Below, piece after piece: positions 1 through 9,879 of a stretch of DNA of 49,981 nt. A program made the translations under genes and the position numbers. Where the stretch lies: positions 1-49,981 of the forward strand of contig JAGPMA010000011.1 in the NCBI GenBank assembly GCA_018053145.1, in the 5' to 3' direction. This DNA is from Oscillospiraceae bacterium. Lineage in GTDB: Bacteria > Bacillota > Clostridia > Oscillospirales > Oscillospiraceae. The notes below the pieces were generated by a model that saw nothing but the letters and a program-made list of their open reading frames with translations, was not told the DNA's origin and made no database searches. Position 1 is the stretch's first letter. Each line of letters opens with the position of its first letter.

Positions 1-200
1 TAAAGACTCATTGCTGTGATAAAGGCTATACCGGGTACAGAAATAAGAGATGAAATAACTGAAGATATATTTTCGTTTTTTGATTCTTCTCTTAGTTGTT
101 TTAATACTTGCTTTTGGGCTTTATCAAATAGCACTAGGCGTAAAAAACAACAAAACACCTCAAGTTGAGTGTCGTCAAGACCTCAAAACGGAAAAAGTAA
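1..200. other. chromosomal flank left of the element; no gene supported
   Basis: No convincing gene is visible. A short frame starting with TTG at 80 encodes a hydrophobic N-terminus but lacks a clear ribosome-binding site and runs across the tRNA terminator and attachment repeat into the mobile element, so it is not called. Another short frame covers about 16-170 without recognisable motifs. The stretch lies downstream of the original tRNA-Gln locus. Confidence 0.4.
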
Positions 201-241
201 AGAGCCGAAAACCCATTGAAAATACTGGGTTATCCGGCTCT
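201..241 (-). terminator. original tRNA-Gln terminator, displaced by integration
   Basis: Arms agagccg (201-207) and cggctct (235-241), with an inner aaccca/tgggtt pairing, form a hairpin. On the minus strand it is followed by a T-rich tract (the A-rich stretch at 191-200 on plus). It sits 8 bases beyond the truncated tRNA 3' end at 249. In the empty chromosome it would have followed the CCA end of tRNA-Gln directly. The hairpin is seen; its former partner is inferred. Confidence 0.6.
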
Positions 242-248
242 TTCTGGT

Positions 249-272
249 CTGGCAGCGGGAGAAGGATTCGAA
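249..272. repeat. distal attachment-site copy (tRNA-Gln 3' fragment)
   Basis: This 24-bp stretch, beginning ctggcagcggg and ending gattcgaa, is identical to 5902-5925. Only the T-loop, acceptor 3' strand and CCA end of the tRNA are present here. It is the displaced chromosomal half left after integration. Confidence 0.88.
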
Positions 273-385
273 TATGGCAATATATGTATATTATAACTTA
301 TTTGGCTTAAAACAGGCGTATTTAGTTCAAAAACTATAAAATTTGGTACCAGTCAGTCCATTAGTTTTATAGAGTCCAAACCCCT

Positions 386-408
386 TAAGGGTCAAAATAA
401 GGGTAAAA
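386..408. repeat. putative integrase arm-type sites, left end
   Basis: The 11-mer taagggtcaaa at 386-396 recurs exactly at 5836-5846 near the other end, and a variant aagggtaaaa follows at 399-408. Short direct repeats inside both ends of an element are typical of arm-type sites bound by the N-terminal domain of Tn916/lambda-type integrases. The repeats are seen; the role is inferred. Confidence 0.4.
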
Positions 409-433
409 ATTTAGGCGACGAAAGGAGCATATC

Positions 434-784
434 ATGGAAATTACATATACAAAGCATGGGGACTATTTATTGCCTGATTTAGTTGCACCGGAGGGGATAA
501 TTACACCTCTCGGTAAGTACGGGCGGCTTCGTATGGATTACTTAAAGCAGAACCGCCGCGCGCTTTATTTAAGCCTCAAAAGCACCTGCAAGCTGAATGA
601 GCATCTTGCCGACGTCGATAGTCAGGCCTGTGAGATGGTTGAGGTGTTAACTTCTCAGATGGCAAAGGCTGAGGGTGTTACGGAGGCGCTCAAGGTTTCA
701 GATCAAATGGCATGGGTCGGAGCAATGAACAATATCCGCAGTAGGGCAGAAGAGATTGCACTAAAGGAAATCGTATATTGCTGA
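434..784 (+). CDS. tnpV: TnpV family protein
   Basis: The 116-residue product matches my memory of the TnpV family, first named in the clostridial transposon Tn4451 and common on mobilisable elements of gut Firmicutes. Recognisable parts are the N-terminal MEITYT..GDYLLP, the central GKYGRLR..YLK..RR, and the C-terminal AKAEGVTEALK and AWVGAMNNIRARAEE-like stretch. The molecular role of TnpV is not established. The start has a good ribosome-binding site (aaggag, 421-426). It is the first gene inside the left end of the element and supports the mobile-element reading. An imperfect hairpin (about 789-811) follows the stop. Confidence 0.8.
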   Translation: MEITYTKHGDYLLPDLVAPEGIITPLGKYGRLRMDYLKQNRRALYLSLKSTCKLNEHLADVDSQACEMVEVLTSQMAKAEGVTEALKVSDQMAWVGAMNNIRSRAEEIALKEIVYC

Positions 785-851
785 CAGCAGGGAGGGGCGC
801 AAGCCTCTCCCTTCATGCTGTAGAAAAATTCAACGTTATCATTGAATTCAT
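785..851. other. gap between tnpV and the array, with GC-rich hairpin
   Basis: The arms ggaggggc and gcctctcc (within 789-811) form a hairpin without a clear U-tract, possibly a weak terminator for tnpV. The remainder is AT-rich and shows no gene. Confidence 0.35.
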
Positions 852-884
852 GACAGTTTGCATTCTTCATGTGCTGGGAGTGAC
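852..884 (-). repeat. decayed leader-distal CRISPR repeat
   Basis: The last 14 bases (871-884) match the CRISPR repeat at 12 of 14 positions, while the other half has diverged. The distance to the first perfect repeat (885-917) is 33 bases, exactly one spacer. A degenerate last repeat marks the end far from the leader, which agrees with transcription on the minus strand. Confidence 0.65.
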
Positions 885-917
885 GATGCCGGATTGGGCT
901 AAATATTTTGGCACCTC

Positions 918-3170
918 ATTTCAATCCACGCTCCCCGTGCAGGGAGCGACTTGGCTGACTTGGCGGTCGGAACGGCGGTCGATATTTCAATCCACGCTCC
1001 CCGTGCAGGGAGCGACTACAACAGAGTTAACTGCAGGCGGCTCTGTATTTATTTCAATCCACGCTCCCCGTGCAGGGAGCGACTCAAAACTGCGGAATCA
1101 GCCATGAGGCAATTTTAATTTCAATCCACGCTCCCCGTGCAGGGAGCGACCGTTGCGGGTTAGTGCCAATACATAACGCAAATCAATTTCAATCCACGCT
1201 CCCCGTGCAGGGAGCGACGACTTGCGTCCCAAAATAGAACGCTATAATGACTGTATTTCAATCCACGCTCCCCGTGCAGGGAGCGACACTCCTCGTCACT
1301 TACTCGCCCTGAGCGTTTTTTATTTCAATCCACGCTCCCCGTGCAGGGAGCGACAACCTCTTGCGGCTCTATTTATATGTACACACCCATTTCAATCCAC
1401 GCTCCCCGTGCAGGGAGCGACAACCGTCAACGCTACAAGCTCGCACACGTCAGCATTTCAATCCACGCTCCCCGTGCAGGGAGCGACTAACTATTGCGAT
1501 ATGCCAATTAACACAGCTTGAATTTCAATCCACGCTCCCCGTGCAGGGAGCGACACGACGGAAGCAACACGATTTATACAGTGAGCGGATTTCAATCCAC
1601 GCTCCCCGTGCAGGGAGCGACGGTGAAAATGTCGAAATACTCATTCAATAATATATTTCAATCCACGCTCCCCGTGCAGGGAGCGACGTTCTTCATGGTC
1701 TTATCATAATACATGTGAACAATTTCAATCCACGCTCCCCGTGCAGGGAGCGACTGTAAATTGACAAACACCACAAACATATGCACATATTTCAATCCAC
1801 GCTCCCCGTGCAGGGAGCGACGCATACATTAACAAGCTGATAGCCGATGATATGGATTTCAATCCACGCTCCCCGTGCAGGGAGCGACGGCACTTTGATA
1901 TATGACAACATAGAAGACCTCCAATTTCAATCCACGCTCCCCGTGCAGGGAGCGACTGACTTTGGCTTTTCAAGTGTTCGTGAACTGTCAATATTTCAAT
2001 CCACGCTCCCCGTGCAGGGAGCGACTATTCAGTTTTCTTTGCGACTTGCGTCCCAAAATAATTTCAATCCACGCTCCCCGTGCAGGGAGCGACGCGTTGT
2101 GTTACATTATATATGAGGTGATGGCATATTTCAATCCACGCTCCCCGTGCAGGGAGCGACCCCTCTTGCGGCTCTATTTATATGTACACACCCATTTCAA
2201 TCCACGCTCCCCGTGCAGGGAGCGACTCTATCGACCCAAACGAAACGCGCGAATGGTTTTTATTTCAATCCACGCTCCCCGTGCAGGGAGCGACATTTTG
2301 CGTATGTGGTTGTTAATACATCTAGGTTATTTCAATCCACGCTCCCCGTGCAGGGAGCGACACTTTTTTAACCTTTGATACTTTAAAGGATTTTCATTTC
2401 AATCCACGCTCCCCGTGCAGGGAGCGACCGCTCGAATTTCGCCGTATCGCAATCGAGTATTTGATTTCAATCCACGCTCCCCGTGCAGGGAGCGACTTCC
2501 GTTATTCGGTGTTTAAGCTCATGCAAGACCGTAAATTTCAATCCACGCTCCCCGTGCAGGGAGCGACTCACAAGCCCTAAGCCTTTTACTTGCTTTGCGA
2601 ATTTCAATCCACGCTCCCCGTGCAGGGAGCGACACACCGGCAGTAAGCTGCTTTCCGATTTCATCACATTTCAATCCACGCTCCCCGTGCAGGGAGCGAC
2701 CCAGCAGATTGAGGCTTTAACATCTCGCGCTGAATTTCAATCCACGCTCCCCGTGCAGGGAGCGACCCGTATATTTGCACTATTAACAATTTCCAATAGA
2801 ATTTCAATCCACGCTCCCCGTGCAGGGAGCGACTCTGCGACAAGCTGTTCCGCGTTGGTTTCGTCTGTATTTCAATCCACGCTCCCCGTGCAGGGAGCGA
2901 CTCTGCGACAAGCTGTTCCGCGTTGGTTTCGTCTGTATTTCAATCCACGCTCCCCGTGCAGGGAGCGACGAGATACAAGCGGCATACATGAGCCTATAAC
3001 TCTTATTTCAATCCACGCTCCCCGTGCAGGGAGCGACTAGAAAACATCAACGCGTTTTAGCCTCGAAATAATTTCAATCCACGCTCCCCGTGCAGGGAGC
3101 GACCTTATCATCGAAAAAGACTGTAAAGCCTATCGAGATTTCAATCCACGCTCCCCGTGCAGGGAGCGAC
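918..3170 (-). CRISPR. type I-C-like CRISPR array, 34 identical repeats, 33 spacers
   Basis: The 33-bp repeat starts atttcaatccacgc and ends gcagggagcgac on plus. Read on minus it begins GTCGCTCC and ends GTGGATTGAAAT, the orientation and 3' tag of type I-C crRNA precursors (Cas5d processed). I counted 34 perfect copies, from 918-950 to 3138-3170, with spacers of 33-38 bases, mostly 34. The palindromic core ctccccgtgcagggag gives a stable stem. Spacers 2834-2868 and 2902-2936 are identical, 1355-1388 and 2161-2193 share 32 bases, and 1219-1254 and 2026-2060 share 18. No cas1-cas8 gene lies in the window, so processing and interference would need Cas proteins encoded elsewhere. Reading frames across the array are repeat artefacts. 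Confidence 0.98.
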
Positions 3171-3321
3171 TGATTGGTCTTGCATTAGCTCTTATATGCA
3201 GGGTAGGAAACGACCCGGAGTTCAGAAGTTGGTATGCTCCCGCGCGCGAGATTCCCAGCGTGGTTGCCAACTGATTTGCATTCAAAACAGCAGGCAGGCT
3301 TTCATAGTTTGTGTTGTTCAT
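3130..3321 (-). pseudogene. truncated excisionase-like HTH gene running into the array
   Basis: A minus-strand frame with a strong ribosome-binding site (GGAGGG, 7 bases before the ATG at 3321) encodes about 45 residues typical of small MerR/excisionase HTH proteins: LNANQLATTLGIS, then AYQLLNSGSFPTLHIR. Family members normally continue with a basic wing and reach about 60-70 residues. Here the frame crosses about 25 bases and then reads the last CRISPR repeat (SRSLHGERGLKS), stopping at 3130. The gene therefore appears 3'-truncated by the array. The family call is from memory; the truncation is read directly. It occupies the position of the CRISPR leader, so the DNA may now serve mainly as leader. 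Confidence 0.6.
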
Positions 3322-3343
3322 TTAATTCCCTCCAAAATTGTTC

Positions 3344-3372
3344 TTGACACAATAGACTCACTGTGATAATGT
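3344..3372 (+). promoter_or_regulatory. promoter for the 3481 gene, facing the CRISPR promoter
   Basis: TTGACA (3344-3349) and TAATGT (3367-3372) have 17-base spacing on plus. The predicted start near 3379 lies about 16 bases from the predicted minus-strand start at about 3395, so the two promoters face each other and their transcripts overlap at the 5' ends. Confidence 0.6.
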
Positions 3373-3401
3373 TAGTAACATAAGTCGAATACATTGTGCA
3401 T

Positions 3402-3430
3402 AGTATAATTTCGTTTCATTAAGTTGTCAA
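3402..3430 (-). promoter_or_regulatory. strong promoter driving the HTH remnant and CRISPR array
   Basis: On the minus strand, -35 TTGACA (3425-3430) and -10 TATACT (3402-3407) are separated by 17 bases, close to the sigma-A consensus. Transcription would start near 3395, pass the HTH remnant and enter the array at its leader end (3170). No other comparably good minus-strand promoter is evident between here and the array. Confidence 0.7.
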
Positions 3431-3480
3431 TAGTCCTAATGTAAACAAATTGTTAATATCGTTCTATTGGAGGGATTTAG

Positions 3481-4563
3481 ATGATTCCCGGAAAAACATT
3501 ACCGAAACCGGTCGGTAAGATTTGGGCAAGCGCATATATGGATTCAAAAACAGAGGTTTTTGAAATACGTACCGGCGTTGCCGGATATCCCGATTCTTTT
3601 CAGACTTTATACCATAAAGAATATGCGCTTGGCACTAGTCTTGCAGATTTTCTCTACGTTGATTTAAATGTATTTGATATGCAGCTTTCGTCAATAATGC
3701 GGAATGTTGATGATATAAACGCTGGCCGAAATGTAAATAAGAGCTTCTCGGCACTTTTTGATACGACAATCTACTGGCTGAATCAAAGCGCACTATTTGC
3801 TCCGTTCTCTGCCGCTATAGAAAGGCTTCATCTTATACACGAAAAGGGAGAAGCTCTTAACACCGATGAGATGGAGCGCCAGATGGATTACTTCAAAGAA
3901 ATTCAACCTCGCCTCCGCATACTAGCAGACGCTTATTACTCCGCTGATGCTTCCGCAGACATGGCGGAACGGTATTTCGAGCATCAGCAAAAGTATGGAG
4001 CAGAGCTTTATCCTCAGTTAACTTTCCAGGCTGTTCGCTTTGGACCGGTTTCCAAGGGTGCAAACGGCTTCTTTCCTTATGATAATCTTCTCAATGCTCT
4101 TATGCCTAGTTCAAAGCAGGACGAGAGCCGATGTGAGCTAATAGATTTCATGGCGGAAACTATGAGCACCACATTGCCGGAGGATTTGGTTCATTTTACG
4201 ATTTATCAGTACATGATTCAGAATCTGCGGTTTAGAGTTTGTAAGTACTGCAAACGTTATTTTGGCGTGACCGGCGGCAGCAATCTGGAATATTGTGACA
4301 GGTTAATTGAGGACTCTACAAAGACCTGCAAAGAAAACGGAGCATTGCGTATTTACGAGAAACGTAAGATGGGCGACCCTGCAATACGCGAGTACAAGCG
4401 CTCATATAAGGCGCACAATGCACGGATACGCTACGGCTTAATGAGTAGGGGGGAGTTCTCCTTGTGGTCGGAGAAAGCGCGAGAGAAGCGCGACGAATGC
4501 GTTGCCGGAAAGCTATCGTTCGAGGAGTTTGTTGAGTGGCTTGACAGTGACAGATTAACTTAA
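3481..4563 (+). CDS. uncharacterised Cys-rich protein of integrative elements (DUF6076-like)
   Basis: The 360-residue soluble protein has a long N-terminal helical region of no recognised fold and a C-terminal putative zinc-binding segment: CKYCKRYF, then a Cys in NLEYCDR and another in TKTCKENG, followed by a basic region. The arrangement resembles the DUF6076/CGNR-type proteins I associate with Clostridia genomic islands; that label is from memory and uncertain. The ribosome-binding site ggaggg is 7 bases before the ATG. It lies between the CRISPR leader and the integrase, with its own promoter at 3344-3372. A regulator of the element or an RNA/DNA-binding effector are both possible. No transposase, nuclease or cas motif is seen. 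Confidence 0.5.
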   Translation: MIPGKTLPKPVGKIWASAYMDSKTEVFEIRTGVAGYPDSFQTLYHKEYALGTSLADFLYVDLNVFDMQLSSIMRNVDDINAGRNVNKSFSALFDTTIYWLNQSALFAPFSAAIERLHLIHEKGEALNTDEMERQMDYFKEIQPRLRILADAYYSADASADMAERYFEHQQKYGAELYPQLTFQAVRFGPVSKGANGFFPYDNLLNALMPSSKQDESRCELIDFMAETMSTTLPEDLVHFTIYQYMIQNLRFRVCKYCKRYFGVTGGSNLEYCDRLIEDSTKTCKENGALRIYEKRKMGDPAIREYKRSYKAHNARIRYGLMSRGEFSLWSEKAREKRDECVAGKLSFEEFVEWLDSDRLT

Positions 4564-4615
4564 AACAACGGACTGACTGGCCGTTTTTATAGACTGAAAG
4601 AAAGAGAGGTTATTA

Positions 4616-5824
4616 ATGGCACATAAGACCATGCGTGGCGCCAACGGCGGCGGGAATATCCGCAAACGCTCAGATGGACGCTGGGAAGCAAGATACACCA
4701 CAGGCATTGATACGAAAACCGGAAAGCAAATTCAAAAATCTGTCTACGGCAAAACTCAAAAGGAAGTAAGGCAAAAGCTCACAGAGGTCACAGCGGAAAT
4801 TGATGATGGCACATATTTGGAGCCGACAAGAATGACCGTGGCAGAGTGGCTTGAAATCTGGCTTAGTGAGTACATGTGGGACAAAAAATACAGCACAGTC
4901 AAGCATTATAAAGCAACCTGCAAAGCAAATATCATTCCGATAATAGGTAATTATAAGCTTGCTGAATTAAAGCCATATATGCTGCAGAAGTACTTTAACG
5001 ATCTTTTCAGAGGAACCAATAATGTAACTGCACATGCCTCAAAAACCGTCCATAATATCCACGGAATCCTTTGTAAAGCGCTGAACCAGGCTGTGATGAA
5101 TGAGCTGATAAAGTCTAATCCGGCCTCAAGAGTCACCTTGCCAAGAATGACCAGAAAGGATATCATACCCTTAACCGATGCTCAGATAGCGGTATTCTTA
5201 CAGCTGGTAGAGAAGGATGAGTACTGCGCACTGCTGAAAACAATTTTGTTTACAGGAATGAGGGAAAGTGAAGCGATTGGACTTACATGGGACTGCATTG
5301 ACTTCGAGAAAGGCACGATAAGACTGTACAGGCAGCTTCAAAAGCGCCCGCTTGCTGATGGAGGCTTCACATTTGAGACTCTGAAAAACGGTAAGGAACG
5401 AATGCTCACACCTGCACCAAGCGTCTTAGAAGTTCTGAAAAAACGAAAAATACAGCAGATGGAACAGAGATTCGCTGCCGGTGCGGCCTGGCAAGGCTTC
5501 CAAACAACAAGAGAACAGGGCAAAGCACTGGTATTTACAACCTTGACAGGAAGCAATCTCAGTCCGCAGACAGTTTACAACCACTTCAAAAAAATAGCAG
5601 TCAAGGCGGGAGCCGCAACTGCTACGGTGCACGATCTGCGACATACTTATGTGGTTCTAAGCATTCAAAATGGCGACGATATTAAAACCGTTCAGGACAA
5701 TGTGGGGCACGCCACAGCTTCCTTCACTCTTGATGTTTATGGCCATGTTTCTGCTAAAATGAAGAAGGACAGCGCCGACAGAATGGAGAATTATATCAAG
5801 CAAATCAAGGCTTCCGCGGTATGA
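4616..5824 (+). CDS. int: tyrosine recombinase (integrase)
   Basis: The 402-residue site-specific recombinase is of Tn916/phage type. An N-terminal arm-binding AP2-like domain (about 10-60) includes the GSIRKR-like start and DGRWEARY. A SAM-like core-binding domain spans about 70-170 and the catalytic domain about 185-390. Catalytic residues are visible: R216 (TGMRESE), probable K257, H339-x-x-R342 (HDLRHTY), H365 (VGHA) and Y375 (DVYGH). All are intact, so the enzyme looks functional. It lies about 80 bases from the tRNA-Gln attachment repeat and is the obvious enzyme for integration there. Its excision partner appears to be the truncated HTH gene at 3130-3321, so excision may be impaired. 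Confidence 0.95.
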   Translation: MAHKTMRGANGGGNIRKRSDGRWEARYTTGIDTKTGKQIQKSVYGKTQKEVRQKLTEVTAEIDDGTYLEPTRMTVAEWLEIWLSEYMWDKKYSTVKHYKATCKANIIPIIGNYKLAELKPYMLQKYFNDLFRGTNNVTAHASKTVHNIHGILCKALNQAVMNELIKSNPASRVTLPRMTRKDIIPLTDAQIAVFLQLVEKDEYCALLKTILFTGMRESEAIGLTWDCIDFEKGTIRLYRQLQKRPLADGGFTFETLKNGKERMLTPAPSVLEVLKKRKIQQMEQRFAAGAAWQGFQTTREQGKALVFTTLTGSNLSPQTVYNHFKKIAVKAGAATATVHDLRHTYVVLSIQNGDDIKTVQDNVGHATASFTLDVYGHVSAKMKKDSADRMENYIKQIKASAV

Positions 5825-5835
5825 AAAAATTCAAA

Positions 5836-5846
5836 TAAGGGTCAAA
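5836..5846. repeat. putative integrase arm-type site, right end
   Basis: Exact copy of the 11-mer at 386-396, located 12 bases after the integrase stop codon and about 55 bases inside the proximal attachment repeat. Confidence 0.35.
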
Positions 5847-5861
5847 CCCGTTTTTTTCATG

Positions 5862-5893
5862 AAAAAAAGCCCTGAAACCACTGGGGTTTCAGG
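5862..5893 (-). terminator. element-supplied terminator for tRNA-Gln
   Basis: Arms cctgaaacc (5871-5879) and ggtttcagg (5885-5893) are followed on minus by seven U (5862-5868). It sits 10 bases after the tRNA CCA end. Because integration displaced the original terminator to 201-241, this one appears to replace it. It may also stop convergent integrase transcription. Confidence 0.75.
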
Positions 5894-5901
5894 ACAATTT
5901 G

Positions 5902-5925
5902 CTGGCAGCGGGAGAAGGATTCGAA
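5902..5925. repeat. proximal attachment-site copy inside intact tRNA-Gln
   Basis: This is the second copy of the 24-bp direct repeat. It forms the 3' end of the functional tRNA-Gln on the minus strand. The crossover lies somewhere within the 24 bases. Confidence 0.88.
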
Positions 5926-5976
5926 CCCTCACAAAATGAGTCAGAGTCATTTGTGCTACCTTTACACAATCCCGCT
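5903..5976 (-). tRNA. tRNA-Gln (anticodon CUG)
   Basis: The cloverleaf reads on minus: acceptor AGCGGGA/TCCCGCT, D stem GTG/CAC, anticodon stem AATGA/TCATT with loop CTCTGAC, T arm GAGGG-TTCGAAT-CCTTC, discriminator G and encoded CCA. The loop gives anticodon CTG, hence Gln for CAG codons. Its 3' 23 bases belong to the 24-bp direct repeat and so came from, or were restored by, the integrated element. Confidence 0.92.
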
Positions 5977-6009
5977 ATATTAAATGAAGCGTTGACAGAC
6001 GCAAGAGTT

Positions 6010-6037
6010 ATTATACTATATTATCCGATAATGTCAA
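6010..6037 (-). promoter_or_regulatory. promoter of tRNA-Gln
   Basis: On minus, TTGACA (6032-6037) and TATAAT (6010-6015) are 16 bases apart, about 34 bases upstream of the tRNA 5' end. Confidence 0.75.
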
Positions 6038-6061
6038 GTAATTCGTTTCGAAAATAACATA

Positions 6062-6091
6062 AATCTGCGCTCTTTTAAAGAGCGCAGATTA
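6062..6091 (-). terminator. hairpin after ireB
   Basis: Arms aatctgcgctctt and aagagcgcagatt form a long stem just beyond the ireB stop. The U-tract on minus is weak, so it may be a terminator or a 3' stabilising hairpin. Confidence 0.5.
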
Positions 6092-6116
6092 TATTGTTTC
6101 TCTCACAAGGCCTATA

Positions 6117-6359
6117 TTACTTTTCCAGATAACTGACAACAAGCTCATGCAAAAGCTCATCGCGGTCAAGTCTGCAAATAAGGCTGCGGGCGTTGTTGTA
6201 ATTAGTGATATAGGTGGGATCCTCGGAAAGAATGTATCCGACGATTTGATTAATGGGGTTGTAGCCCTTAACGATGAGAGAGTTATAGACAGAGGACAAA
6301 ATTTCCTTCATTTCCGTCTTGTTGTCGATAACATTGAACTTGCGTGTTGCATCCTCCAT
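6117..6359 (-). CDS. ireB: IreB family regulatory phosphoprotein (UPF0297)
   Basis: The 80-residue product has the family pattern: [27 protein letters not shown] in the middle and [22 protein letters not shown] near the end. IreB in Enterococcus is phosphorylated by the Ser/Thr kinase IreK and adjusts cell-envelope stress and cephalosporin resistance. In many Firmicutes the gene (yrzL) sits between alaS and ruvX; here neither is adjacent. The start has GGGAGG a suitable distance upstream. It is probably a single-gene transcript ending at the hairpin 6062-6091. Confidence 0.9.
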
Positions 6360-6462
6360 ACATATAGCCTCCCTTCAACTTTATAACCTTATTATAGCAA
6401 AATTATTCCAAGAGTAAAGCGGTTTAATATTACCGTTAAGTTACATTTTAGCTCAAAAGCTG

Positions 6463-8841
6463 CTATCTTATTACAGCGCCATGCACTTTTTCGAGCGTTT
6501 TCAGGATTGACTTCATGATTTCGTCCGCATGCTCGTCCGTCAGAGTCTGATCCTTGGCACGCATTGCAAGCGAAAAAGCTACGCTGCGCTTGCCCGCGGG
6601 GATGCCTGTACCGGTGTAAACATCGAACAGACGGCAGGCTTCAAGGTAGTCGCCGCCGGCTTCATACATCGTATCGGTAAGCGCGGCAACCGTTATGGAA
6701 GTGTCGCAAACAACGGCGATATCACGTGACATTGCAGGGAAGCGCGGCAGAGGAGCATAGGTCGGTTCAGGTGAAACACAGGCCATCATGGCTGGTATGT
6801 TTAGCTCGGCAGTGAAAACCGTAACATTCAGCCCAAACTCATCCGCAACTGAGGGATGTGTTTGCCCCATCATTCCCAGAACGGTATCTCCACAGGTGAT
6901 TTTTGCACAGCGACCCGGGTGATAGGCGACATTATCGGTATCGGCGTCGAAACGAACATTTTTAATCCGCAAAGCGGCGAATAACGCCTCAATGTCGCCC
7001 TTTGACTCAAAGAAATCCGCGGTTTTTCCGAATTCACCGAGGGTTAAAACCATGTGCTCATCGGCAAGCTCACAGCCGTCGATTGGAAGGTAGACAGTGG
7101 CAAGCTCAAAGAGCTTAACGTCCATGTTGCGCTTTGCAAGGTTTGTTGCCAAAACGTCCAGCATAGAGGGGAGAGCGGTGGTGCGCATAACGCTGGTGTC
7201 CTCGCCGAGCGGGTTTTGTATAACGAAGGCATTACGCAGAGGACTGCTCTCTGGCAGATGGATTTTGTCCCAAGCGGTTTTGCTGCCAAAGGAATAGGTC
7301 ATAACCTCAAAATATCCCATACCGCGGCAAACGGCACTGATTTCACGTTCAAACTTTTGTTTAGGCGAAAAGCCGCCGCGAGTTGTTGCTCCGCTGAAGA
7401 TTGTAGGCTCAATTTTGTCATAGCCGTAGAAGCGGCCGACCTCCTCCGCAATATCAGCATAATGCTCGATATCCGAGCGGAAGGAGGGCGCGCAAATGAT
7501 GTTGCCGTCCATTTTAAAGTCGAGCTTTTCGAGAACCTTGACCATAAAATCGCGGTCAAGCTCAGTGCCCAAAAGCGCATTAATGCGCTCAGGCTCAAGC
7601 GGCAGACGAACTTCCTTCGGCTCAACCGATACGACGTCGATAACGCCGTCCATTACCTCACCCGCTCCGAGAAGCTCGATGAGTTCGCAAGCACGCTCCG
7701 CGGCAGGAACAGTGTTCATCGGGTCAAGACCCTTTTCAAAACGGCCGGACGCGTCTGTGCGCATACCAAGGGCAATCGCCGTTTTTCGAATCGAAGTGCC
7801 GTTGAAGTTTGCGGACTCAAAAACGATGGTGCCGGTCTTTTCGGTAATCTCGCTGTTTCCACCGCCCATAACGCCGGCAAGTCCGATAGGGTCGTGCTCA
7901 TCGGCGATGACAAGCATGCCCGAGGTTATTGCACGCTCTTTGTCGTCAAGAGTTTTAAGAAACTCGCCGTCTTTTGCGCGGCGCACAACGATTTTTCCAC
8001 CCTTGACGCAGGAATAATCAAATGCGTGCATAGGTTGGCCATATTCAAGCATAACATAGTTTGTGATATCAACGATGTTGTTAATCGGACGGACACCGCT
8101 GGCACGCAGTCTGCGGCGCATCCACGCGGGAGACGGAGCAATTTTGATATTCTTGACCATTTTGGCAGTGTAGCGAGGGCAAAGGGCAGGGTCAGCGATT
8201 TCAACCTTAAGGTGGTCAGCGATGTTACCCGCACCGCCCTTAACCACAGGCTTATGGAGCTTTAGCTTCTCGTCAAAGGTCGCAGCGCTCTCGCGTGCAA
8301 GTCCGATGACGGAAAGACAGTCGGGGCGGTTGCTGGTAATTTCGAACTCAACAACGCTGTCATTGAGCCCTAATACAGCCTTAATGTCGTCGCCAAGCAT
8401 GCAGGGCTCCTGCAGGATGAAAATTCCGTCTTCAATTGCATAAGGGTAGTCGCTCAGCGTGAGCCCAAGCTCCTTAAGAGAGCAGAGCATCCCCTGAGAC
8501 TCAACACCGCGAAGCGCACCTGTGCGAATTACGATGCCGCCGGGAAGCGTCGCACCGTCCTTGGCAACGGGAACAATGTCGCCGGTTTTAACATTCTGAG
8601 CACCGGTTACGATGGTGATAGGCGCACCATTTCCGACGTCAACAGTGCAAATCCACATATGGTCGGAGTTTTCATGACGTAAGATATCAAGCACCTTGCC
8701 TGCCACAACTTCTGTAATTCCTTCGCCTGTAACTTCCCAACCCTCGACCTTTGAGCCGGAGAGGGTCATAGCGTCGCAGTATTCTTTATCTGAGGCTTTG
8801 ATGTCCGTGAATTCGGACAGCCATTCGCGTGATAGTTTCAT
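6463..8841 (-). CDS. pheT: phenylalanine-tRNA ligase beta subunit
   Basis: The 792-residue beta subunit of the (alpha-beta)2 phenylalanyl-tRNA synthetase is of the long bacterial form. An N-terminal tRNA-binding OB domain (about 40-150; VGNGAPITIVTGAQNV) is followed by B3/B4 editing and B5 domains (IVDITNYVMLEYGQPMHAFD; RFEKGLDP), the inactive catalytic-like core and a C-terminal anticodon-binding ferredoxin-like domain (PRFPAMSRDIAVV). It follows pheS by 12 bases and shares its T-box-controlled transcript. Long open frames on the opposite strand are composition artefacts. Confidence 0.97.
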   Translation of the reverse strand: MKLSREWLSEFTDIKASDKEYCDAMTLSGSKVEGWEVTGEGITEVVAGKVLDILRHENSDHMWICTVDVGNGAPITIVTGAQNVKTGDIVPVAKDGATLPGGIVIRTGALRGVESQGMLCSLKELGLTLSDYPYAIEDGIFILQEPCMLGDDIKAVLGLNDSVVEFEITSNRPDCLSVIGLARESAATFDEKLKLHKPVVKGGAGNIADHLKVEIADPALCPRYTAKMVKNIKIAPSPAWMRRRLRASGVRPINNIVDITNYVMLEYGQPMHAFDYSCVKGGKIVVRRAKDGEFLKTLDDKERAITSGMLVIADEHDPIGLAGVMGGGNSEITEKTGTIVFESANFNGTSIRKTAIALGMRTDASGRFEKGLDPMNTVPAAERACELIELLGAGEVMDGVIDVVSVEPKEVRLPLEPERINALLGTELDRDFMVKVLEKLDFKMDGNIICAPSFRSDIEHYADIAEEVGRFYGYDKIEPTIFSGATTRGGFSPKQKFEREISAVCRGMGYFEVMTYSFGSKTAWDKIHLPESSPLRNAFVIQNPLGEDTSVMRTTALPSMLDVLATNLAKRNMDVKLFELATVYLPIDGCELADEHMVLTLGEFGKTADFFESKGDIEALFAALRIKNVRFDADTDNVAYHPGRCAKITCGDTVLGMMGQTHPSVADEFGLNVTVFTAELNIPAMMACVSPEPTYAPLPRFPAMSRDIAVVCDTSITVAALTDTMYEAGGDYLEACRLFDVYTGTGIPAGKRSVAFSLAMRAKDQTLTDEHADEIMKSILKTLEKVHGAVIR

Positions 8842-8853
8842 TATTTACCCCTC

Positions 8854-9879
8854 CTAAAACTGGTTCAAAAATCTGACGTCGTTCTCGTAAATCAAACGCA
8901 GATCGCTGATAGCAAATCTGCGCATAGCCGTGCGCTCAAGACCGATGCCGAAGGCAAAGCCGGAATAAACCTTGCTGTCGATTCCGCAGCCCTCAAGCAC
9001 CTTTGGGTGAACCATGCCGGCACCAAGAAGTTCAATCCAGCCCTCGCCCTTGCATACACGGCAGCCCTTGCCGCCACATTCAAAGCACTGAACGTCGACC
9101 TCGCAGCTCGGCTCGGTAAAAGGGAAGTGATGCGGACGAAAACGCGTAACTGCGTCTTCACCATAAAGACGCTTAACAAGCGTGTTCAACGTTCCCTTGA
9201 GGTCACCCATGGTGATGCCCTTATCAACGACAAGACCCTCTATCTGGTGGAACATGGGGCTGTGCGTAGCGTCAACCTCGTCCTTGCGGTAAACTCTGCC
9301 CGGAGAAATTACGCGAATGGGAAGACTTTGGGTTTCCATCACGTGAATCTGGACGGGTGAGGTCTGTGTGCGGAGCAAAAGACGGTCGTCGTCGGTGAAA
9401 TAGAAGGTATCCTGTCTGTCACGCGCGGGATGACCCTCATCGGTATTCAGCTTTGTAAAGTTGTAGTCCGCGTATTCGATTTCAGGCCCCTCGGCAATCG
9501 TAAAGCCCATACCGATAAAAATTTCCTTCGCCTCGTCCAAAACGGTGTTAAGCGGATGCTTTTTACCGATTGCAACGGTTTTTCCGGGCATGGTCACATC
9601 AATTTTCTCGGCGCGCAGACGCATCTCGAGCATCTTCACCGCAAGCTCCTCGCGCTTTGCGTCGATTGAATTAGTCAGCGCCTCGCGAACCTCGTTGGCA
9701 AGCTGCCCTACAATCGGACGCTCGTCTTCGGAAAGTCCGCCCATCTGCTTTAAAACAGCGGTAAGTTCGCCCTTTTTGCCGAGATATTTAACTCTCAGAT
9801 TTTCTAAATCCTCAATGCTGACTGCGCCGGTAATCGCAGACAATGAGGCATCCCTAAGCTCCTGTAATAATTTTTTCAT
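8854..9879 (-). CDS. pheS: phenylalanine-tRNA ligase alpha subunit
   Basis: The 341-residue catalytic alpha subunit charges tRNA-Phe. An N-terminal coiled coil (about 1-90) precedes the class II core, with motif 2 around SPGRVYRKDEVDATHSPMFHQ and motif 3 at GFAFGIGLERTAM. CxxC-like residues (CFECGGKGCRVC) form an insertion common in Firmicutes PheS. It is the first gene after the T-box leader and is followed by pheT. Confidence 0.97.
   Translation of the reverse strand: MKKLLQELRDASLSAITGAVSIEDLENLRVKYLGKKGELTAVLKQMGGLSEDERPIVGQLANEVREALTNSIDAKREELAVKMLEMRLRAEKIDVTMPGKTVAIGKKHPLNTVLDEAKEIFIGMGFTIAEGPEIEYADYNFTKLNTDEGHPARDRQDTFYFTDDDRLLLRTQTSPVQIHVMETQSLPIRVISPGRVYRKDEVDATHSPMFHQIEGLVVDKGITMGDLKGTLNTLVKRLYGEDAVTRFRPHHFPFTEPSCEVDVQCFECGGKGCRVCKGEGWIELLGAGMVHPKVLEGCGIDSKVYSGFAFGIGLERTAMRRFAISDLRLIYENDVRFLNQF

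What the first reader, a model, noticed from the sequence alone, without database searches (positions are those of the whole stretch)
249..5925. Compact tRNA-Gln integrative element whose main cargo is a cas-less CRISPR array
A 24-bp tRNA-derived direct repeat bounds an element with an intact tyrosine integrase, tnpV, one uncharacterised gene and a 34-repeat type I-C-like array that makes up about 40% of its length. No cas gene is present. The array would have to use Cas proteins in trans, so the element may work as a mobile spacer library that rides on the host's CRISPR system and protects the host, or itself, from competing elements. Large mobile arrays without cas, carried on an element with its own integrase, are not a described standard system as far as I know.
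Basis: partly seen in the sequence, partly recalled or inferred. Interest (0 to 1): 0.88.

Follow-up and report, generated by a model that had tools for sequence, protein, structure and literature searches.

The report
Stranded CRISPR array in broken element
A small chromosome-inserted mobile element carries a 34-repeat CRISPR immune-memory array that has lost its leader, has no cas genes beside it and is fused into a broken gene of the element, so it looks more like a stranded remnant than a purpose-built travelling spacer library.

Summary
In detail: a 24-bp tRNA-Gln-derived direct repeat (249-272, 5902-5925) bounds 5.65 kb with tnpV, 34 perfect type I-C-like repeats, a DUF6076 gene and an intact tyrosine integrase, and no cas gene. 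The array is read on the minus strand. Its trailer (left) end looks natural, with a degenerate 35th repeat; its leader (right) end is cut: the first repeat lies 22 nt from a truncated excisionase gene (43 residues left; relatives have 67). The cousin at tRNA-Gln carries intact xis, an AAA_25 ATPase and a Mob_Pre relaxase where the array sits here. 17 of 18 I-C-like arrays with visible upstream DNA end in TGC[T/A]; this one does not. Cas1 and Csd1 were not found in the genome (95% complete). Among 62 other stretches around related integrases or DUF6076 genes none showed a cas-less array; one has an array beside Cas10-like ORFs. Best reading: a degenerate integrative mobilizable element holding a leaderless piece of a I-C locus, probably left by deletion. 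Transcription from the xis promoter is possible; adaptation and autonomous excision look lost. The 'mobile spacer library' is not supported. Spacer targets were not found.

The parts
1..248 (.). Left flank, probably native chromosome downstream of tRNA-Gln; hairpin at about 198-245 is the likely original tRNA terminator
   Evidence: 175-275 matches G400:C338 at 80%, where a different integrase element starts at the same att core; folds at -24.7 kcal/mol, z -6.2; 1-174 had no match in the genus
249..272 (+). attL, 24-nt copy of the tRNA-Gln 3' end
   Evidence: same core at tRNA-Gln in congeners
434..784 (+). tnpV (PF14198)
   Evidence: a 48% relative in the same genome at C54
852..884 (-). Degenerate terminal (35th) CRISPR repeat, trailer end
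   Evidence: 18 of 33 matches in exact 33-nt register; 3 of 20000 shuffles of the flank reach 18
918..3170 (-). CRISPR array, 34 perfect I-C-like repeats and 33 spacers between them, plus a 34th spacer (885-917) before the degenerate repeat
   Evidence: repeat hairpin -14.4 kcal/mol, z -2.8; repeats of this form lie with Csd1 and Cas1 in three congeners
3171..3192 (-). 22 nt of neither xis nor usual leader at the joint; possibly a cut spacer
3130..3321 (-). Truncated excisionase ORF: 43 xis residues (3193-3321), then out into the array
   Evidence: 67-aa relatives in L119 and L073; HTH_17 positions 2-30 of 51, below cut-off, here; 2-50 of 51, above cut-off, in L119
3402..3430 (-). Promoter-like site TTGACA-17-TATACT upstream of xis, now in front of the array
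   Evidence: 11 of 12 matches, 1 site found where shuffles of the stretch give 0.9 on average, so its number alone is not beyond chance; similar hexamers at spacing 17 upstream of xis in L073 and L068 by eye
3481..4563 (+). DUF6076 gene with a Cys-rich zinc-finger-like motif (by eye); recurrent neighbour of xis and int
   Evidence: model pLDDT 84.7, no PDB match at E 0.001
4616..5824 (+). Tyrosine integrase, intact
5854..5898 (.). Hairpin between int and tRNA, likely element-borne terminator
   Evidence: similar sequence after int in L108 and L115 by eye
5902..5925 (+). attR within tRNA-Gln
5903..5976 (-). tRNA-Gln (CTG)

Best explanation
This is a degenerate integrative mobilizable element (IME) at tRNA-Gln. 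Its usual right half (xis, DUF6076, integrase, att) is present, but what lies left of it in its tRNA-Gln cousin (3' part of xis, AAA_25 ATPase, Mob_Pre relaxase) is replaced by tnpV and the trailer-side part of a type I-C-like CRISPR array. Shown: the att repeats, the cut xis, the absence of a usual leader, a natural-looking trailer, the cousin's layout, no Csd1 or Cas1 found in the genome. Inferred: an active I-C system built the array, and one deletion (or a tandem insertion followed by deletion) removed the leader-side spacers, the leader, the cas operon and the IME's mobilization half and fused the array to xis. Inferred function: any transcript would start at the xis promoter; it would yield crRNAs only if I-C Cas proteins are supplied from elsewhere; new spacers cannot be added without leader and Cas1-Cas2; the unit should excise poorly without Xis. 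In this genome it is most likely an inert remnant.
For: att, array and genes. Cut xis: homology to 67-aa relatives stops at residue 43; Pfam HTH_17 half matched (against 76). Leader loss: of 26 array loci looked at, those with at least 40 nt upstream, duplicates and L139 (array runs off the locus) removed, are 18; 17 of 18 end in TGC[T/A], L144 does not; the window has ...ACCAATCA. Natural trailer: degenerate repeat in register. Cousin layout: L108, beside tRNA-Gln, has int 66%, DUF6076 53%, xis 83%, then AAA_25 and Mob_Pre and no array. Real I-C-type history: spacers 17 and 29 overlap by 18 nt and spacer 29 carries TTC just 5' of the start of spacer 17; 15 and 27 share 32 nt; 4 and 5 are identical. 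Csd1 and Cas1 not found in the own genome, while 3 of 11 genus genomes have both. No other repeat within 3 mismatches in the genome. No cas-less array in 62 other distinct stretches.
Against: No intermediate state (array with cas beside this IME) was found, so deletion is not shown; capture by other recombination would look alike. The genome is 95% complete in 106 contigs, so a cas operon could be missed, and only Csd1 and Cas1 were searched. All 34 repeats are identical, which suggests little decay: the event may be recent or the array under selection. One of 18 arrays (L144) also lacks the usual leader end, so the ending is not absolute. In the cousin L108 no second att copy was found within 4 mismatches, so its left border is unknown. 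The exact repeat was found in no other genome scanned, so its source is unknown. The joint is seen in one fragmented assembly only.
Confidence: 0.7

Rival explanations
1. Mobile spacer library: an element selected to carry a cas-less array that uses Cas proteins of each host in trans, against phages or competing elements.
For: att-bounded, intact integrase, large array with perfect repeats; a repeat differing by one base is present in 7 other genomes, each of another genus, among 400 family genomes; a sigma-70-like site reads into the array.
Against: Usual leader absent, xis cut, no relaxase recognised, Csd1 and Cas1 not found in the genome, no cas-less array in 62 other distinct stretches, no spacer match to any fetched element, cas locus or the window beyond shuffled level.
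Confidence: 0.08
2. Tandem accretion: a separate island holding the I-C locus and tnpV sat between attL and the IME at the same tRNA; loss of the inner att and the cas operon fused the two.
For: tRNA-Gln is used by other elements: a 56%-identical integrase beside it in G362 and an unlike integrase at the same att core in G400. tnpV was found in 1 of 20 loci (L120, on the far side of int) and in 0 of 40, so it is not a usual part of this IME.
Against: No inner att remains; no tnpV, integrase or DUF6076 match was found in the 20 array loci other than the window's own, most of which show only about 1.5 kb around the array match.
Confidence: 0.15
3. Assembly artefact: the array and the element half were joined wrongly in a metagenome assembly.
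For: Fragmented assembly (106 contigs); the joint is seen once only; the CRISPR repeats are identical 33-mers at which short-k-mer assembly can go wrong; spacers 4 and 5 are identical.
Against: the repeat finder shows no direct repeat of 18 nt or more across the xis side of the joint; a wrong join at a repeat would still need a real repeat 22 nt from xis; the att repeats lie correctly on both sides of the whole unit; the trailer end looks natural.
Confidence: 0.07

Closest known systems
Orphan (cas-less) CRISPR arrays on plasmids and chromosomes (PMC9071438, PMC5294841; passages seen)
   Same: Array without cas nearby, in PMC9071438 on mobile elements; remnant and in-trans use are the two readings offered there
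   Different: Here on a chromosomal tRNA element, fused into a broken xis, usual leader absent, and long (34 repeats), while orphan arrays were on average 39% shorter than cas-associated ones (passage of PMC9071438)
Virus-borne mini-CRISPR arrays (review PMC11656645, passages)
   Same: Array on a mobile element with no cas genes
   Different: Those have one or two spacers, the host's own repeat and mostly spacers against related viruses; here 34 spacers, no host system found with the repeat, no target found
Type I-C CRISPR-Cas loci of the same genus (G003, G400, G401)
   Same: 33-nt repeat of the same form, spacers of similar length
   Different: Those have Csd1 and Cas1 and an upstream end TTTGCA or TTTGCT; their repeats differ by three or more bases
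Cousin elements in CAMCNO010000008.1 (L108, tRNA-Gln) and Oscillibacter sp. MSJ-31 (L119, tRNA-Val)
   Same: int, DUF6076, divergent xis, int next to a tRNA
   Different: They keep a full xis and go on to an ATPase and a relaxase (profiles run on L108 only; like ORFs in L119), and carry no array

Membership tests
Type I-C CRISPR array | 33-nt repeat GTCGC...GTGGATTGAAAT with regular unique spacers | tested here: met
   same form as arrays next to Csd1 and Cas1 in congeners. 34 spacers, of which 4 and 5 are identical and 15 and 27 nearly so
Type I-C CRISPR array | Leader next to the first repeat | tested here: not met
   judged by the last bases before the repeat, 17 of 18 others share TGC[T/A]
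Type I-C CRISPR array | cas operon of subtype I-C in the genome | tested here: not met
   Csd1 and Cas1 not found; genome 95% complete; other cas genes not searched
Orphan CRISPR array | No cas genes within 10 kb (definition in PMC5294841 passages) | tested here: inconclusive
   No cas gene recognised by eye among window ORFs of 90 aa or more; left of the array only 851 nt are seen
Integrative mobilizable element | Site-specific recombinase and att sites at a tRNA | tested here: met
Integrative mobilizable element | Relaxase or oriT for transfer | tested here: not met
   No relaxase among the element ORFs searched with Pfam; Mob_Pre present in cousin L108; oriT not searched
Integrative mobilizable element | Intact excisionase | tested here: not met
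   not a strict requirement of the class
Virus-borne mini-array | One or two spacers, against related elements | tested here: not met
   34 spacers; no match to fetched related elements

The most novel reading that the evidence does not exclude
A CRISPR array has been captured under an excisionase promoter of an integrative element, making a leaderless, Cas-free immunity cassette that is switched with the element's own excision control, can be moved by its integrase when a cousin supplies Xis and transfer functions, and works in any host with a I-C effector.
Probability: 0.08. Interest if true: 0.7.

Novelty: new member of a known kind. Interest (0 to 1): 0.35.

Why it matters
It shows in one locus a way by which a cas-less array can end up on an integrative element: by loss of the leader and cas side and fusion to an element gene, not by recruitment. 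If the array is still transcribed from the xis promoter, it would be a natural test of whether leaderless arrays can be driven by a foreign promoter and used by Cas proteins in trans.

Tried and rejected
Spacer targets: the array stretch against phages (3 records) and plasmids (14 records): I judged the matches to be of the repeat-and-spacing kind from coordinates and identity (60-90%), without viewing alignments. Patterns from spacers 15/27, 17/29, 4/5, 7, 14 and 3 against viral contigs: 0 of 6 found; the other spacers were not scanned there. 34 spacers against 140 fetched loci (932,369 bases, overlaps included): best 10 mismatches, shuffled spacers also 10. The own-genome search with window 1-7000 gave no spacer match elsewhere at E 0.001. 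Array stretch against 400 family genomes: 112 with a match, listed identities 64-81% apart from the window's own, taken as repeat matches; list cut short. Exact repeat: 0 in genome contigs, 0 in viral contigs.

Anti-cas spacers (mentioned in PMC9071438 passages, reference list): not supported, no spacer matches the fetched cas loci.

Recurrence: 66 stretches around related integrases or DUF6076 genes, 51 of at least 5 kb, four overlapping pairs, so 62 distinct; the window is not counted. The finder needs three exact 18-mers 45-110 nt apart. Two were flagged. L208 has a real array, about 6 kb from the integrase and next to ORFs that I read as Cas10-like and RAMP-like, without a profile search, so it is not counted as cas-less. 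L116 is a repeat that reads as leucine-rich-repeat coding DNA, not a CRISPR (my reading). L101 holds only 310 nt before int. Of 90 integrase places listed (the window's own included), I fetched 40 and already held 6 others.

DUF6076 fold: good model, no PDB match at E 0.001; function unknown. PADLOC: no match for tnpV, DUF6076 or int. Papers: 6 searches; passages seen of PMC11656645, PMC9071438 and PMC5294841, no paper read whole. In those searches I saw no cas-less array in an IME (one search gave three papers, seen as listing only).

Full report
What is there. The window is the whole of contig C51 of a 2.25-Mb, 106-contig genome, 95% complete. Between two exact 24-nt copies of the 3' end of tRNA-Gln (249-272 and 5902-5925) lie tnpV (434-784), 34 perfect I-C-like repeats (918-3170), a DUF6076 gene (3481-4563) and a tyrosine integrase (4616-5824).

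The left border. Window 175-275, with a strong hairpin just outside the att core, is 80% identical to G400:C338, where a different tyrosine integrase gene (Phage_integrase above cut-off, a zinc-ribbon match below cut-off) lies just inside the same core. Two unlike elements sharing one outer flank suggests that the flank is the pre-existing downstream side of tRNA-Gln. Window 1-174 had no match in the genus. In the fetched flanks beside tRNA-Gln of G223, G003, G388 and G263 (about 3 to 8 kb each) no match to tnpV, xis, DUF6076 or this integrase was found at E 0.01; G362 has an integrase of 56% identity next to tRNA-Gln. G401 and G300 show less than 1 kb of that side, G173 and G333 were not clearly the same site.

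The repeat in its usual direction (GTCGC...GAAAT) is on the minus strand, so the leader should lie at the right end, from 3171. Instead there are 22 nt of unknown origin and then an excisionase gene cut after residue 43; relatives have 67 residues. The relative in L119 fills HTH_17 positions 2-50 of 51; the window gene reaches 30 and falls below the cut-off. In 17 of 18 distinct I-C-like arrays with at least 40 nt upstream, those bases end TGC[T/A]; L144 is the exception, and here they are ACCAATCA. Rows dropped: five with less than 40 nt upstream, two duplicates, and L139, whose array runs off its locus. At the left end a degenerate repeat sits in exact 33-nt register (18 of 33; 3 of 20000 shuffles reach that), as expected of a natural trailer. 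So one end of the array looks natural and the other broken.

What the element was. DUF6076 relatives were found at 17 places in the genome collection and one viral contig. In L108, beside tRNA-Gln, the order is int, DUF6076, divergent xis, AAA_25 ATPase, Mob_Pre relaxase; no second att copy was found there within 4 mismatches, so its left border is open. L119/L068, beside tRNA-Val, has like ORFs in the same order. In L069, L071 and L072 int ends next to tRNA-Tyr. L115 has the closest integrase (94%) and a shortened DUF6076 gene, without array. The array with tnpV thus stands where the 3' part of xis, the ATPase and the relaxase stand in the cousins. tnpV itself was found in 1 of 20 and 0 of 40 related loci.

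The array is a real product of adaptation. Spacers 17 and 29 overlap by 18 nt, and spacer 29 carries TTC immediately 5' of the start of spacer 17, the motif recalled as the I-C PAM; spacers 15 and 27 share 32 nt; 4 and 5 are identical. Yet Csd1 and Cas1 were not found in the genome, while 3 of 11 genus genomes have both; their repeats differ by three or more bases. A repeat one base away is found in 7 other genomes of 400.

How it most likely arose and works. The simplest path is a deletion that removed the leader-side spacers, leader, cas operon and the mobilization half of a neighbouring IME; this is inferred, no intermediate was seen. A promoter-like site upstream of xis (TTGACA-17-TATACT, 3430-3402 minus; one such site is also expected by chance in a stretch of this length, but similar hexamers stand at the same place in two cousins) now faces the array, so a transcript is plausible. 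Without Cas proteins it would do nothing, and without a leader the array should not grow. Excision is doubtful without Xis, although related elements could in principle supply it.

Is it a recurrent design? In 62 distinct stretches around related integrases or DUF6076 genes no cas-less array was found; one of them (L208) has an array beside ORFs that look like Cas10 and a RAMP protein, about 6 kb from the integrase. Many stretches are short or end at contig edges (51 of 66 fetched are at least 5 kb), so rare cases could be missed. Spacers match neither the fetched elements nor cas loci better than shuffled controls. The library idea therefore rests on this one locus.

Known context. Orphan arrays on plasmids (207 found) and their two readings, remnant or in-trans use, are described in PMC9071438 (passages); mini-arrays of viruses in PMC11656645 (passages); isolated arrays as remnants in PMC5294841 (passages). 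The present case belongs with these, with an unusual joint.

Noticed in passing
L165 (G400:C338) 1392-2564: A tyrosine integrase with a weak N-terminal zinc-ribbon match (below cut-off) lies just inside the same tRNA-Gln att core in a congener; with G362 this makes tRNA-Gln a repeatedly used site.
   Followed up: partly
L208 5072-5917: CRISPR array with an unusual repeat (GTTGCCGTCCCCGTGAGGGGTGCGGGTTGCGTC) beside ORFs that read as Cas10-like and RAMP-like, about 6 kb from a related integrase.
   Followed up: partly
window 3481-4563 and relatives: DUF6076 is a recurrent neighbour of xis and int in these IMEs (119 of 400 family genomes, the own included, have a match), with a Cys-rich motif and no PDB fold match; function unknown.
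   Followed up: partly
L148 (G000:C28): Another element in the same genome with a distant DUF6076 gene and ORFs that read as an AAA ATPase, a relaxase and a serine recombinase (by eye).
   Followed up: no
L147 (G000:C7) 8324-9517: A second related integrase (49%) in the same genome, beside two tRNA-Ser genes.
   Followed up: no
L115: Closest integrase (94% identity) in UBA1320, with an N-terminally shortened DUF6076 gene and no tRNA found on its 5-kb contig: another degenerate copy.
   Followed up: partly
L161/L146 array end: Its last, degenerate repeat carries the CCCTGCAC loop that all window repeats have.
   Followed up: no
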